Source: Candidatus Stramentimicrobium fermentans
GTDB taxonomy: Bacteria; Atribacterota; Phoenicimicrobiia; Phoenicimicrobiales; Stramentimicrobiaceae
DNA length: 16,522 nt
Assembly (NCBI GenBank): GCA_012520575.1
Contig: JAAYOB010000041.1
Location: 1 to 16,522 of the forward strand
Direction: 5' to 3'
In this document: positions 3,596-13,158 of the stretch, in pieces
Layout of the letters: the number at the start of each line of letters is the position of its first letter
Position numbering within the stretch: the first letter of the stretch is position 1
Position numbers and translations under genes: made by a program
The notes under the pieces: model-generated
The model's database searches: none
What the model was told of the DNA's origin: nothing
What the model saw: the letters and a program-made list of their open reading frames with translations, nothing else

Positions 3596-4102
3596 ATGGA
3601 AGAAAAGGTTAAAAAAAATGAAGATGTTGCAATAGAAAAAGAGAATGTTAAAAATAAATCAAAAAAAGAGAAAGAGGTTCTCAAGGAAAAAGAGGTAACA
3701 ATGTCTCAAGAAAAAGATAGCAACAATATTCAAGAAATTATGGAGAGAATAGAAAAATTAACTGTTTTAGAATTGGCTGATTTAGTTAAATCTCTAGAAG
3801 AAAAGTTTGGTGTAAGCGCTGCTGCACCTCTTATGGCTCAAAATGTTATTTCGGCACAAGGAGCTGCACCAGCAGCTCAGGAGGAAGAAAAAACAGAATT
3901 TGATGTTGTTTTAAAAGAGATTGGAGCCAATAAAATACAAGTAATTAAGGAAGTAAGAGCTGCTACTGGTTTGGGTTTGAAGGAGTCTAAGGACCTGGTA
4001 GAAGGAGCCCCAAAAGCTGTTAAAGAAAAAGTTGAGCTAAAAGAGGCACAGGCTTTAAAAGAAAAATTAGAAGCAGTCGGAGCAACTGTGGAATTGAAGT
4101 AG
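3596..4102 (+). CDS. rplL: 50S ribosomal protein L7/L12 with N-terminal extension
   Basis: L7/L12 is the multicopy stalk protein that recruits and stimulates translational GTPases such as EF-Tu and EF-G, both encoded in this window. From ATG 3596 it has 168 residues, against about 120-130 in the family. The canonical part begins near residue 45: a dimerisation domain ([20 protein letters not shown]), an Ala/Gln/Glu-rich hinge (about 76-100), and a C-terminal factor-binding domain from F102 ([20 protein letters not shown]). Residues 1-35 are almost all Lys and Glu with Val/Asn and look disordered or helical. ATG 3596 has a good site (GAGGAG, 3581-3586). A second in-frame ATG at 3701, also with AGAGGT before it, would give a normal 133-residue protein. 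Either or both may be used. Confidence 0.95.
3691..3703 (+). promoter_or_regulatory. Possible internal translation start in rplL
   Basis: AGAGGT (3691-3696) is followed after four bases by ATG at 3701, in frame with rplL. Starting here gives [20 protein letters not shown], the normal beginning of an L7/L12. The spacing is slightly short. It decides between a 133- and a 168-residue product. Confidence 0.45.
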
Positions 4103-4336: not shown

Positions 4337-7300
4337 GTGACAAATACCAAACTGGATATTTTGGACTACTCCAAAATAAAAAACTATATCGAGCCACCTG
4401 ATTTTTTAGATGTTCAAAAACAATCTTTTCAGAAATTTCTACAAGAAAATATTCTTCCTGAGAAACGACAGGATATCGGCTTGCACAAAGTGTTTAAAGA
4501 TGTGTTCCCTATTCAGGATTTCACCGGGAACCTTGTTTTAGAGTACATGCATTATTCCATTAAAGAGCCAAAATACACCCCTATGGAGTGCTGGGAGAGG
4601 GGTAGTACGTATTCTGCACCATTGGAAGTAAGAATAAGTCTCCATAATAAAAAAGATGGTGAAATTAAAGAGCAGGATGTTTTTATGGGAGAGATACCAT
4701 TAATGACCGAAAGTGGCAGCTTTATCATTAATGGAGCTGAGAGGGTTGTGGTCAATCAATTAATACGTTCACCCGGTATTTATTATGGTAGTGAAGAATA
4801 TAGCGAGAATAAGATCCTTTTTAATTATAGAATCATTCCCAATCGGGGCTCTTGGTTAGAATTTGGCTTTGATAGTAATAATATGATTTATGTTAGAATT
4901 GATAAAAAAAGAAAAATCCCTGCTACTACTCTATTAAGGGCTTTGGGTTATGAGAGTAATGAGCAGATATTGGATTTATTTGATAATAGCGAAATTATTC
5001 AGGAAACTTTAGTAAAAGATAATACTACTAATAAAAGTGATGCACTAGTTGAAATATTTAGAAGGCTTAGACCTAGCGAACCACCCACAGAGAGGAATAC
5101 ACGTCAATTACTGGATAGATTATTGTTTGACCCTAGAAGGTATGACCTGGCGGATGTTGGCAGATACAAGGTAAACCAAAAACTAAACATTCAAAACAGA
5201 ATTTTAGATATGACTACCGCAAAAAATGTTAATGACCCTCTTACCAAAAAACAATTAGTGAAAAAAAATACACATATTAATAAAAGAATAGCAGAATTGA
5301 TTAGCCAATCTGATGTCGATAAAGTATATGTCTATAATGATAATGACCAGGAAATTAGCGTCTATAATGAAAAAGAAGATGTTGTAGTCAACTTGTATGA
5401 CTCTGATGAAGGAATTGTCAATGAGAATACTATAGGTCTGCAATTAGCCGAAGATGTTATAAACAATGAAACAGGTGAAATAATTGCCGAAAATGGTCAA
5501 GTCCTTGATCTGGAGCTGATTAACAAGATCGGACAAACACAGTCTTTCGCAAGAGTAAAAAAAGGAAACGCTTTAACTAGGGATGATTTAGTGGCTTCAA
5601 TGAGGTACTTAGTTAATCTCTATTATGGGGTTGGGCACATTGACGACATTGACCATTTAGGGAATAGAAGAGTAAAGACCGTTGGGGAATTATTATTAGA
5701 TCAATTTTATATTGGTCTGGTAAGAATGGAAAGAGTAATCCGGGAAAGGATGACCATACAGCCTGACCTTTCTTCAGTTACTCCACAAGCTTTAATAAAT
5801 ATTAGGCCATTGGTGGCCTCAGTTAAACAATTTTTTGGTAGTAGCCAATTGTCCCAATTTATGGATCAAACCAATCCTCTTTCTGAAATTACTCACAAGA
5901 GAAGGTTATCAGCACTTGGTCCGGGTGGATTAACCAGAGAAAGAGCAGGATTTGAAGTTCGTGATGTCCATTATAGCCATTATGGTAGAATATGTCCCAT
6001 TGAGACACCTGAAGGCCCAAATATAGGGTTAATTGGTTCATTAAGTATTTATGCCAGAATTAATAACCTCGGTTTTATTGAGACTCCTTACCGGAAGGTA
6101 GAAAATGGCAAAGTTACTGATAAAATTATATATCTTACTGCTGACGAGGAAGACCAGTATAAAATAGCTCAAATCAATATAAAAATTGATGACAACCATA
6201 AGATTACCCAAGAAGGGATTCCTTGTAGATATCGAGATGTATATCTGACTGTTTCTCCGGAAGAGGTAGATTTTATAGATGTTGCGCCAGATCAGATGGT
6301 CAGTATTTCTGCTAGTTTAATTCCTTTTTTAGATCATGATGATGCTAACAGGGCTTTAATGGGAACCAATATGCAAAGGCAAGCAGTTCCGGTAATAAAA
6401 GCAGAAACCCCGTTAGTTATGACTGGAATGGAAAGTAAAGTTGCCCGCGACTCGGGAACGATCATAATAGCAGAAGAAGACGGGGTAGTAGAAAAGGTTG
6501 ATTCCCGAAATATTATAGTTAAAAGCAATCAGGGCAAAAGTAAAGAATATATTTTAAAAAAGTTTCATCGTTCCAATCAAGGGACATGTATTAACCAAAA
6601 GCCAATCGTTAAAGAAGGGCAAAAAATAACAAAAAACATGGTCATGGCCGATGGTCACAATACTGAACAGGGATTTCTGTCATTAGGGCGGAATATTCTG
6701 GTAGCTTATATGTGCTGGGAAGGATACAATTTTGAGGATGCTATAGTAATAAGTGAAAAATTGGTTCAAGAAGATACCTTTACCTCTATTCATATAAGCG
6801 AGCATGAGTGTGCTGCCAGAGATACCAAATTAGGCCCGGAAGAGATAACTGCAGATATACCTAACATTGGTGAAAGCAGCTTAGCTAATTTAGATGAAGA
6901 TGGAGTTATTCGTATAGGTACAGAAGTAGAGGCCGGTGATATTTTAGTAGGCAAAGTAACTCCTAAAGGAGAAACGGAATTAGGCCCGGAAGAGAGATTA
7001 TTAAGGGCAATATTTGGGGAGAAAGCCAGAGAAGTCAGGGATACCTCCCTCAGGGTTCCACATGGCGATAGGGGGAAGGTAATTGATATAAAGGTTTTTT
7101 CCAGGGAAAACGGCGATGAGATCCCACCGGGTGTGAATAAGATGGTAAAAGTTTTTATTGCCCAAAAAAGGAAGATATCAGAAGGTGATAAAATATCGGG
7201 AAGGCATGGCAACAAAGGTGTTATAGCAAAAATATTACCGGTCAATGACATGCCTTTTTTACCAGATGGTACTCCTATTGATATCATCCTAAACCCTCTA

Positions 7301-8028: not shown

Positions 8029-11000
8029 TTGGAAATCTCAAAAAGAATTAATGCTATAACAATAGGATTAGCTTCACCAGAAGATATTAGGAAATGGTCC
8101 CATGGGGAAGTTAAAAAACCGGAAACCATTAATTATAGAACTCTCAAACCTGAAAAAGATGGGTTATTCTGTGAACGTATTTTCGGTCCCGTTAAGGATT
8201 GGGAGTGTAGTTGTGGAAAATATAAAAGAGTTAGGTATAAAGGGGTTATATGCGACCGTTGTGGTGTAGAAGTAACTAAGTCAATCACTCGACGCGAAAG
8301 AATGGGCCATATTGACTTAGCCTGTCCGGTTTCGCACGTATGGTATTTCAAGGGTATACCAAGTCCGCTTGCTTTATTGTTAAATATTCCCCCCAAAAAT
8401 TTAGAAAAAATACTCTACTTTGCACCAGATCGCAGAAGAGAACAATTATATGAAGCTCAAAAATTCGACGATAGTTCTGAAAATAATAATAAAATGTTTT
8501 TTGAAAATGGAGTAATAACCGAGACTGAGTTTAAAATACATAAAATGTATAATCCTAATTTCAATGCTGAATTATTATACCGAGTCAAACAGACAAAAAT
8601 ATTTCCACATAAGGTTGGAGATGTTATTACCAATAAAGAATTATCAGAATTGCAAGAAGTTTTTGGAAGTTTATTTTTCACTGTAGAGCCATATTTACCT
8701 CTTGAACTTAAACAGCAGAAAGGCGAATATGATTTAAGTGGGGCAGGTTTTAAGGCAGATGAAACAGACAAGGTAGAGGAAGAACAAGAAAAAAGCGAAT
8801 CTGCTGCGGAAAAAATATCTGAAACCGGGGAAACAATTGAAAATAATGAAAAAGAGACAGAAGTAGATTATAGAATATTAGAAATAGATGGACTAATCTC
8901 GGAGAGCAAACTATCTCCCCTTATAGAAAAAGAACAAGGACTGGCAAAAAAAACAACTATGGCTAAGCGAACAGTGGAAGAGTCTTGCTATGCAGTAATC
9001 AATCCCAGAAATACCAATCATAAAGTTGGTGATACCATATTGGAATCTGAAAATAGATTACATACCTATTATGATCCTGAATTTAAAGCAGGTATAGGCG
9101 CTGAGGCTATAAGGGCCATGTTAAAGGATATAAATCTTGATTCTTTGAATATGGAATTACGCGAAGAGCTAAAACACTCATCTGGCCAAAAAGCAAAAAA
9201 AATAATCAGAAGGCTACAAATAATCGATGCTTTTCGAAAAAGTAATGGTAAACCAGAATGGATGATTCTGGATGTGTTGCCTGTAATTCCTCCGGATTTG
9301 CGGCCTATGGTACAGTTAGAAGGTGGGAGATTTGCTACCTCTGATTTAAATGACCTTTATCGTAGAGTCATTAATCGTAATAATCGTTTAAAAAGATTAT
9401 TAGAACTGGGAGCACCTGGTATTATTGTTAAGAATGAAAAAAGAATGCTACAGGAAGCTGTTGATGCCTTAATAGATAATGGCAGGAGAGGTCACGCTGT
9501 TTTAGGTGCCGGAAATCGTCCCCTTAAATCGTTAAGCGATTTATTGCAGGGGAAAAAAGGAAGATTCAGACAAAATTTATTAGGTAAAAGGGTTGACTAT
9601 TCAGGTCGTTCGGTAATAGTAGTTGGTCCTAAACTAAGACTATACGAATGCGGGATACCAAAAAAAATGGCCTTAGAACTATTTAAACCCTTTATAATGC
9701 ACAATTTGGTTAAAAGAGAATTAGCTCATAATATTAAGACTGCTAAGAAGTTGGTAGAACAGGAATCTCTCGAGGTTTGGAATATTTTGCAAGAAATTGT
9801 GGAGGAGCATCCTGTTTTGTTGAATAGAGCTCCTACCTTGCATAGATTGGGGATACAGGTTTTTAAACCGATATTAGTGGAGGGGAATGCTATCCAGCTC
9901 CATCCCTTAGCCTGTCCAGCCTTTAATGCCGATTTTGACGGTGACCAGATGGCGGTGCATGTTCCTTTATCCATAGAGGCACAGACCGAGGCCGAAATGT
10001 TAATGTTGGCCAGTAATAACGTTTTATCACCTGCTAACGGTACACCTATTGCCTTACCCTCTCAAGATATTATTTTAGGATGTTATTATCTGACTATGAA
10101 AGCAAAGGGAGCAAAAGTAGAAAAGAGTATTTTTGCCAATCCTGAAGAGGCTATTAGAGCACAGGAAGATGGTTATATAGACATACATACTGTGGTAAAA
10201 GTTAGAGTAAAAGGAAAAATTGAGGAAACAACAATAGGGCGTATCTTATTTAATCAAGTTTTACCCGAAGACTTTAAATTTGTGGATTTGACTATAGATA
10301 AAAAAGGATTAGCTCGAATTATTTCTTATATTTACCGCCAGTACGGACAAGATGTAGCCGTTAATTGCTTGGATGATATAAAAGAATTGGGTTTTCACTA
10401 TGCAACTATATCAGGTATAACTATTGGAATAGTTGATTTAGAAATACCTTCCGAGAAAGAAAGAATATTAGAAGAAGCTGAAAAGAATGTTGCTAAGATT
10501 AGAGAGCAATTTAATTATGGTTTAATTATGGAAGAGGAAAGAATAGAAAAAATTATTAATGCCTGGACCGATGCAGCTGACGAGGTAATTAGTGCTATTA
10601 TTGGAAACCTGAGCAGCTTTAATCCACTTTACACTATGGTTGAATCCGGAGCCCGGGGAAGTCGAAGACAAATTGGTCAGTTAGCCGGAATGAGAGGCCT
10701 AATGGCAGATCCCTCCGGAAAAATTATTGAGTTTCCTATTCGGTCTAATTTTAGAGAAGGCTTATCTTGTTTAGAGTATTTTATCTCCACGCATGGAGCA
10801 AGAAAAGGTTTAGCTGATACAGCACTTAGAACATCTAAATCAGGCTACTTAACCAGAAGATTAATAGATGTAGCTCAGGACCTTATTATTACTGAAGAAG
10901 ATTGCGGTACCAGTGATGGTATAATCGTTTCTGATATTGAAGAAGATGGAAATGTTATTGAAAAATTAGACGAGAGAATAGTGGGACGTACTGCCCTGGA

Positions 11001-13158
11001 AGACTTGATAAACGCTAAAACTGGAGAAATATATGTACACAAGGATGAAAACATTGACGAAAAGGCTGCTAAAAAAATTAATGACGCAGGTATAAAAGAA
11101 GTAAAAATAAGATCACCATTAACCTGTGTTTCTAAAAAAGGTATTTGCGCTAAGTGCTATGGCAGAGACCTTGCTTCTGGCCAAATGGTGACTATTGGTG
11201 AGGCAGTAGGTACTATTGCTGCCCAATCTATTGGTGAACCGGGAACACAATTAACATTAAGGACTTTTCATACCGGTGGAATAAAAATTACCGGTGAAGA
11301 TATAACTTTAGGATTACCCAGGGTAGAACAATTATTTGAAGTAAGAAAACCAAAAAAACAGGCTGTCATAAGCGAAATAAATGGATATGTAGACAGCGTT
11401 AAAGAAGGACCAAAATCTGCGGAAAAAGAAGTTATCATAAAACCGGAGGCCGAAATATTAACTGCAAAGAACAAAGAAACCAAAAAAAAGGTTTATTCCA
11501 TACCAAAAGATTTAAGAATTACAGTTGAAGAGGGTCAGAAAGTTACAGCTGGGCAAAAGTTAACTACTGGTTTTGTTGATCCCAACGATATTTTAAGAAT
11601 ACAGGGTATCAAGGCTGTTCAAAAGTATCTCCTAGAGCAAGTACAAGAAGTATATCGTTCACAAGGCGTTACAATTAATGATAAACATATAGAAGTAATC
11701 GTCAGACAGATAGCCCGCTTGAATAAAATTTATGTTAAAGCATCTCGTGATTCCGAGCTACTTTCTGGAGAGCTAGTATACGTATCTGATTTTGAACAGG
11801 CTAATAAGCAAGTTGTTCTTGAGAATGAAGAAATTCGAAATAAGAACAGAAAATTACTCATGAACAAAACCTTAGTTCATTGTATTTCTGGAAATAAAGG
11901 GGATACTTTAGTCGATGAGAATACTGTCATTGATGAAAATGTTATAAATAAAATTGAGAATTCTGAATGTTTGAGTTTCGATGTCTTGGATGAACAAGGC
12001 GGAACAATTAATATTGTACAAGGTGAAATAAACTTTATAGGGCGAATTAAAGACTATATTTTCATTGGAGATATTTCGGAAGACATCCCGAAGACCAAAA
12101 ATACTAAAGATGATGAGTTGAGAACTAAGGATTTAGAGAAACTCAAGGGAAATATAATCACTAAAGAGATTGCCCTTGAGTTAGTAAGGAACAATGTCAG
12201 TAAGATACGAATTTATAAGCCAGAATTAAGTGTTGAATTAATTGGGAAAATGTTGGCACAGGATATTAAAGACCAGAATGAACAGAATATTATCATTCCT
12301 GCTAATACAATTTTAGACGAAAATGATATAAAGAGAATAATAGAACAACAATATGAAAAGATTGAGATATGGAGCGATATTAAAGAGATTAATATCAGAG
12401 AAAACTTAGTAAGCATTATTAAAGATGATGTTATCGGTAAGAATTTAGGTAAAGAACTTAGGGACGAAACGGGTAATATCATCGCCGACATAAAGCAACC
12501 AGTAAGCAAAAATATTATTAGAAAAGCATATTCTGCAGGGATTAGCGACATACCCTTAGAGGATGGTCGATTCTTTTCTTTAGAAGGCAGGGTTTTAGAA
12601 TATATCTATAATAATCTTGTTGGAAAAATCATTGCTCAAGATATTACAGATAAATATACCGGAGAAATAGTTATATCGGCAGGCGACAAAATTACTAAAA
12701 ATAATGCCCAAGCTTTGATACAGCAAGTGGTTGAATTAGTCAAATATCGGACTGAAAGTAGCCAGCCAGAGCCAATTTTCTTAATTGAGAATGTGGGCTT
12801 CATGAAAAGAATTAAGTTGCCCGCAGTTGGGATGCCTATTATACAAGGTATTACCCAAGCTTCTTTATCTACTGAAAGTTTCCTATCGGGGGCCTCTTTT
12901 CAGAGGACTACCCATGTTTTGACCAATGCTTCTATCAAAGGTAAGATAGATTATCTGTTGGGCTTAAAAGAAAATGTGATTATTGGCAATATTATACCTG
13001 CCGGAACCGGGTTGGGTCAATATAGAAATATTGAAATCACCTCCAAATATGAGGAGGAGCTGGAAAAAGAGGTTCAAAGTCAAAATGCATTAGAAATTGT
13101 AGCTCAGGCAGAACAAAATAATCAAATTGTTTCAGATAGATATGATGATAGTGAATAA
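8029..13158 (+). CDS. rpoC: DNA-directed RNA polymerase subunit beta-prime, with large inserts
   Basis: RpoC carries the catalytic Mg2+ and most of the clamp. It has 1709 residues from TTG 8029 (GGGGAGG at 8014-8020), against about 1200 in B. subtilis and 1407 in E. coli. Visible parts are: the N-terminal zinc ribbon C60, C62, C75, C78; an insert at about 134-354 with acidic linker 244-283; the active site NADFDGDQ (D635, D637, D639); the second zinc site C959, C1033, C1040, C1043; bridge helix/trigger loop region [20 protein letters not shown] with H1081; and no insert inside the trigger loop. Between FEQANK (about 1263-1268) and GITQASL (1607-1613) lies an insert of about 300 residues made of some five repeated modules of about 64. 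The conserved C-terminal end [17 protein letters not shown] follows. No frameshift or missing catalytic residue was seen. Confidence 0.98.

What the first reader, a model, noticed from the sequence alone, without database searches (positions are those of the whole stretch)
11850..12780. About five tandem 64-residue modules inserted near the C-terminus of RpoC
Between the conserved FEQANK and GITQASL segments, where B. subtilis has only a few residues, RpoC has some 300 extra residues. They contain recurring units near residues 1277, 1345, 1405, 1468 and 1531, spaced about 60-68 apart. The pattern is [I/V]GK..AqDI.D..TGeI[I/V]...n.I....A..I......I.I. The clearest copies are IGKMLAQDI (1405), [17 protein letters not shown] (1469) and [18 protein letters not shown] (1531). 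They resemble the conserved RpoC unit [18 protein letters not shown] (985-1002), suggesting growth by internal duplication. The insert should lie on the outside of the polymerase near the jaw/clamp base and could bind DNA or a partner.
Basis: partly seen in the sequence, partly recalled or inferred. Interest (0 to 1): 0.6.

Follow-up and report, generated by a model that had tools for sequence, protein, structure and literature searches.

The report
Five-module arm on Atribacterota RNA polymerase
The largest subunit of this Atribacterota bacterium's RNA polymerase carries five tandem copies of a small module that every bacterial polymerase has once at another site; the same array occurs throughout Atribacterota and in their relatives the Synergistota, so it is an old, selected extra part whose function is unknown and now testable.

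Summary
RpoC (1709 aa) has 329 extra residues (1275-1603) in its C-terminal small-left-claw domain (beta'-bD7, beta' shelf). A close Clostridium RpoC aligns there with no residues between the flanks. Profile comparisons show five units of about 50-70 residues similar to each other and to the core unit at 985, well above controls. AlphaFold predicts the same fold five times (pLDDT 84). Its best solved matches are the known BBM2/BEAN domains: E. coli beta SI1, the core beta' unit, gephyrin/MoeA. So this is a tandem array of a known RNAP insertion module at a reported insertion site (PMC11515920).

Additions: the array is in every Atribacterota genome whose RpoC could be read there and in 61/61 Synergistota; units are largely colinear and the two phyla group together in a core RpoC tree made without the insert. 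Other lineages carry one or four units at the same site, which fits growth by duplication. The insert is acidic and under purifying selection, so simple DNA binding is unlikely; UvrD docking is not a general function. Most likely it is an external protein-docking arm; its partner is unknown.

The parts
8029..13158 (+). rpoC (RNA polymerase beta'), 1709 aa from the TTG at 8029
   Evidence: NCBIfam TIGR02386 1678 bits
10930..11124 (+). core beta' BBM2/BEAN unit (beta'-bD5, residues 968-1032), present in all bacteria
   Evidence: PMC11515920
11851..12837 (+). whole insert, residues 1275-1603, in the C-terminal small-left-claw domain beta'-bD7
   Evidence: gap against 8i23_D
11821..11994 (+). BBM2 unit 1 (residues 1265-1322), with its leading helix
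11995..12213 (+). BBM2 unit 2 (residues 1323-1395), with a variable low-confidence loop
12214..12381 (+). BBM2 unit 3 (residues 1396-1451), invariant W1448
12382..12567 (+). BBM2 unit 4 (residues 1452-1513)
12568..12777 (+). BBM2 unit 5 (residues 1514-1583), the unit closest to the core unit
12553..12591 (+). [13 protein letters not shown] segment joining units 4 and 5; most conserved part of the insert in Atribacterota (0.91 against 0.59 mean)
11791..11808 (+). FEQANK, left flank of the insert
12847..12867 (+). GITQASL, right flank of the insert

Best explanation
The insert is five tandem BBM2/BEAN modules placed in the C-terminal small-left-claw domain (bD7) of beta', which belongs to the beta' shelf of the swivel module. 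Shown here: the five-fold repeat, its kinship and predicted fold shared with the core beta' unit and with beta SI1, its presence throughout Atribacterota and Synergistota, and purifying selection. Inferred: it arose from one BBM2 inserted at bD7 that then multiplied in tandem before the two phyla diverged; it forms an acidic arm, on the order of 100 A long, projecting from the polymerase on the downstream-DNA side; and it works as a protein-docking or bracing surface, not by binding DNA. In Atribacterota the segment joining units 4 and 5 ([13 protein letters not shown]) is the likeliest contact site, either with a lineage-specific factor or with the polymerase itself. Confidence in identity and origin is about 0.9; in the docking role about 0.4.
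For: Unit-to-unit and unit-to-core profile scores far above controls. The insert model repeats one pattern five times with pLDDT 83.8, and the core unit shows it too. Foldseek's top matches are E. coli-type beta chains, with the isolated SI1-bearing fragments 7egs and 3lti also listed; VIA-align matches fall on core beta' 893-967 (Mtb), beta 226-336 (E. coli) and gephyrin/MoeA, proteins or protein families reported to hold BEAN domains (PMC11515920 names RNAP-beta, RNAP-beta' and MoeA). Distribution; named Atribacterota contigs; Synergistota named by an exact genome-length match, 1,848,474 bp (PMC3035242). Colinearity: for units 2, 3 and 4 the same-number match is best in both row and column, and S1's best match is U1. 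Core RpoC tree without the insert: the two phyla on one side of a branch, 100/100. Units at the same site: one in several lineages, four in another. dN/dS of the insert is 0.03-0.26. Length 317-334 aa across the phylum; net charge 0 to -25 in all 37 sequences. BBM2 inserts can be docking sites: the PcrA CTD binds beta SI1 (PMC8318588).
Against: No partner was found and no function was tested. The [13 protein letters not shown] segment is not conserved in Synergistota. The insert evolves about 1.4 to 5 times faster than the core by dN/dS, so part of it may be little constrained. The placement in the whole enzyme is inferred from sequence position; the larger model has a poor core (pTM 0.42). 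VIA Z values of 5-6.6 are modest, as expected for 55-75 residue modules, and Foldseek TM-scores are low.
Confidence: 0.6

Rival explanations
1. Docking array for the PcrA/UvrD helicase: the TGE hairpin of BBM2 is the helicase interaction motif of beta SI1, so extra BBM2 units would recruit extra helicase.
For: The published motif [VIL]-D-x-x-T-G-E-[VIL]-[VILT] lies in the SI1 insert of beta (PMC8318588). Strict copies occur in unit 1 or 5 of several JS1 relatives, most of whose genomes also have the UvrD Tudor domain.
Against: This genome has no Tudor domain at E<=0.001; only 14 of 50 Atribacterota do, none of them in families f3-f7. Strict motifs are absent from the insert in 18 of 25 RpoCs and from all Synergistota checked (one of the 25, L057, was not parsed). 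The beta subunit keeps its own TGE- or SGE-type hairpin in most JS1 genomes read.
Confidence: 0.07
2. Neutral accretion: the array spread by duplication with no specific function and is kept only because bD7 tolerates it.
For: The insert changes faster than the core; module number varies between lineages at this site; the [13 protein letters not shown] segment is not shared by Synergistota.
Against: dN/dS well below 1, nearly constant length, no loss seen in either phylum, and a run of near-invariant residues that the repeat fold alone does not explain.
Confidence: 0.25
3. Intramolecular brace: the arm closes over the main cleft and touches sigma or the beta lobe, like the cyanobacterial SI3-sigma arch.
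For: Two tandem BBM2s of E. coli beta-i4 form a rod about 50 A long (PMC2939025), so five could span a large part of the enzyme. A long beta' insert of another fold makes such an arch in cyanobacteria (PMC10120043).
Against: No complex model could be built here; the insertion site differs from SI3 (bD7, not the trigger loop).
Confidence: 0.25
4. Downstream DNA-binding arm.
For: The shelf lines the downstream-DNA channel (PMC6970531).
Against: Net charge -12 in the window and 0 to -25 in all 37 sequences; E. coli beta-i4 and beta'-i6 are also acidic (PMC2939025).
Confidence: 0.05

Closest known systems
beta-beta' module 2 (BBM2) / BEAN domain, CATH 3.90.105.10 (Iyer 2004; Opalka 2010 PMC2939025; Alvarez-Carreno 2024 PMC11515920)
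   Same: Same predicted fold, TGE-type hairpin in several units, insertion into RNAP large subunits, tandem repetition (one to six reported for beta-i4)
   Different: Five units in beta' bD7, where the accessible text names only an insertion site used by rare variants and does not mention Atribacterota or an array
E. coli beta SI1 (beta-i4)
   Same: Two tandem BBM2 units; acidic surface; nearest solved structural match
   Different: Lies in the beta lobe, two units; SI1-type inserts contact the UvrD/PcrA C-terminal domain. This insert lies in the beta' shelf
Cyanobacterial SI3 (PMC10120043)
   Same: A large tandem-module beta' insert, grown from a module family native to RNAP
   Different: SBHM/HABAS fold, in the trigger loop, about 630 residues
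Core beta' unit beta'-bD5 (residues 968-1032 here)
   Same: Homologous module, highest profile score with unit 5
   Different: Single copy, universal in bacteria, at another site

Membership tests
BBM2/BEAN domain | Full-length profile similarity to known BEAN domains (HHalign probability >70%) | tested here: met
   Units 1-5 vs the core beta'-bD5 BEAN: 94.7-98.6%
BBM2/BEAN domain | Fold of two alpha/beta brackets, as in beta SI1, beta'-bD5 and MoeA | tested here: met
   VIA-align and Foldseek matches to these domains; rows cover mainly units 3-5, with unit 1 matching C. difficile beta 280-339. Z 5-6.6 and Foldseek TM-scores are low, so this supports the call but the call rests on the sequence result
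BBM2/BEAN domain | TGD/E hairpin motif reported for the beta-subunit members | tested here: inconclusive
   TGE in unit 5 and TGN in unit 4 of the window; varies by unit and lineage
Lineage-specific RNAP insert | Absent from most phyla, fixed within a lineage, at a reported insertion site (beta'-bD7) | tested here: met
   Present in Atribacterota and Synergistota. Of 63 other genomes measured 56 have the short 55-59 residue spacing and 7 a 96-98 residue version without BBM2; site named in PMC11515920
Helicase interaction motif (PcrA/UvrD docking site) | [VIL]-D-x-x-T-G-E-[VIL]-[VILT] in the insert together with a Tudor-domain UvrD | tested here: not met
   Window insert has no strict motif and the genome has no PF21196 match
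SI3-sigma-arch-type brace | Contact between the insert and sigma across the cleft | not testable with these tools
   No complex prediction available

The most novel reading that the evidence does not exclude
A five-module BBM2 arm built once in a common ancestor of Atribacterota and Synergistota is an added functional part of their RNA polymerase: a docking or bracing arm on the beta' shelf with a lineage-specific partner, and a rare structural marker uniting the two phyla.
Probability: 0.35. Interest if true: 0.6.

Novelty: new variant of a known kind. Interest (0 to 1): 0.38.

Why it matters
RNAP inserts are where bacterial phyla differ in how they regulate transcription. A large array kept across two phyla, largely colinear unit by unit, gives a phylogenetic marker for a disputed part of the bacterial tree and a clear target (isolates exist in both phyla) for asking what tandem BBM2 modules do. 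The 0-1-4-5 series at one site is also a clean example of domain growth by duplication.

Tried and rejected
DNA binding: rejected on charge. UvrD docking as the general function: rejected on absence of the Tudor domain and of the motif. Pfam and NCBIfam have no model for the insert. Placing the insert with the 776-residue model failed: core pLDDT low, pTM 0.42. A MAFFT alignment with whole E. coli RpoC misplaced SI3 and was not used for the site; the E. coli numbering comes from reading the DKHIE-GIT stretch by hand. One HHalign control that overlapped unit 1 was discarded. Table S4 of PMC11515920, which may list a Synergistetes bD7 variant, could not be read (no supplement look-ups). Lane and Darst 2010 is not held. 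A handful of surveyed genomes could not be measured by pattern.

Full report
What is there. It holds the ordinary ribosomal-protein/rpoBC/S12-S7-EF-G cluster. RpoC (8029-13158, 1709 aa) carries 329 residues (1275-1603) between FEQANK and GITQASL that a close Clostridium RpoC lacks altogether.

Repeats. I aligned 25 Atribacterota RpoCs, cut the insert into five units and compared the profiles with each other, with the core unit at residues 968-1032 and with other RpoC segments. All 15 pairs score 25.5-76.3 with probabilities of 64-98.6%; genuine controls reach 21. Unit 5 against the core unit is the best pair. Units 1 and 2 are the most diverged. In Caldatribacterium-type sequences the five units can be read by eye.

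Structure. AlphaFold on the insert with an alignment of 29 sequences gives pLDDT 83.8 and the same helix-strand-strand-helix-strand pattern five times; the core unit has it too. Foldseek's best matches are E. coli-type beta chains and SI1 fragments. VIA-align places the model on core beta' units, on beta SI1 (226-336) and on gephyrin/MoeA. RNAP-beta, RNAP-beta' and MoeA are among the proteins in which BEAN domains were described (PMC11515920). The insert is therefore a tandem array of BBM2/BEAN modules.

Site. By position the insert lies at about E. coli beta' 1295-1300, in domain beta'-bD7, within the beta' shelf as defined in PMC6970531 and in the swivel module. The shelf lines the downstream-DNA channel. 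bD7 is one of seven insertion sites named in PMC11515920, where rare variants combine HABAS, BEAN and small-left-claw modules; Atribacterota are not mentioned in its text.

Distribution. The insert is found over its full length in the Atribacterota genomes whose RpoC is contiguous there, families f1-f7; a few same-phylum genomes gave no RpoC match at all (incomplete MAGs). Among about 240 genomes of other phyla one (G171) aligned across it, and 61 of 61 genomes of that phylum match, most across the whole insert; one genus of family f208 matches in two pieces. A single-contig member has exactly the published length of Thermanaerovibrio acidaminovorans, 1,848,474 bp (PMC3035242), so the phylum is Synergistota. 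Of 63 further genomes measured, 56 have the short spacing and 7 a longer one that looks like a duplicated small-left-claw hairpin; none has BBM2 units. Single BBM2 units sit at the same site in G288/G150, G099 and G241 and in G389/G404, while G233, in the family of the last two, has four.

Origin. Same-number units of the two phyla match best for units 2, 3 and 4 in both directions, and S1 matches U1 best, so the array existed before they separated, or was transferred whole. A tree of the RpoC core without the insert puts the two phyla on one side of a branch (100/100), with 40 other rows sampled. One insertion followed by tandem duplication in their common ancestor is the simplest account; the four-unit array of G233 is separate.

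Function. dN/dS in the insert is 0.03-0.26, against 0.02-0.11 in the core: constrained, but less than the core. It is acidic to neutral in all 37 sequences, which argues against DNA binding. The best-conserved stretch is [13 protein letters not shown] between units 4 and 5, not kept in Synergistota. Since the BBM2-type hairpin of beta SI1 binds the PcrA Tudor domain (PMC8318588), I tested that idea: the window's genome has no such Tudor domain, 14 of 50 Atribacterota do, all in families f1-f2, and the strict motif is missing from most inserts. UvrD docking may apply in one JS1 family at most. I commit to a protein-docking or bracing arm, with about 0.4 confidence in that role.

Verdict. It is a new, large and phylum-wide version of a known kind of polymerase insert, not a new kind of system.

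Noticed in passing
window 8434-9114 (RpoC residues 136-362): The N-terminal small-left-claw (bD2) looks duplicated: residues 138-180 and 318-354 align at 98.5% HHalign probability, with an acidic stretch between them in the window; the region is 171-226 aa across the phylum.
   Followed up: partly
window 5432-5560 (RpoB residues 366-408): RpoB has its own BBM2-like unit with a TGE hairpin ([12 protein letters not shown]), close to the helicase interaction motif, although the genome lacks a UvrD Tudor domain.
   Followed up: partly
L040 (JAGXNU010000222.1): A contig labelled Candidatus Lokiarchaeota carries an Atribacterota JS1-type rpoC; probably a misbinned contig.
   Followed up: no
L095, L105, L106, L113, L114, L129, L132, L160, L161: bD7 about 40 residues longer with a second DPGDS-type hairpin: apparent tandem duplication of the small-left-claw itself in another set of lineages.
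   Followed up: no
L064 (G233), L179, L180: One family shows 1 unit (G389, G404) and 4 units (G233) of BBM2 at bD7, an apparently recent expansion.
   Followed up: partly
G333, RpoC copies on C4 and C9: One Synergistota genome gives two separate full-length RpoC matches (1925 and 1665 aa frames); assembly redundancy or a second rpoC.
   Followed up: no
window 3596-4102: The L7/L12 frame has a lysine/glutamate-rich N-terminal extension before an internal ATG (MSQEKD...); the start codon is uncertain.
   Followed up: no
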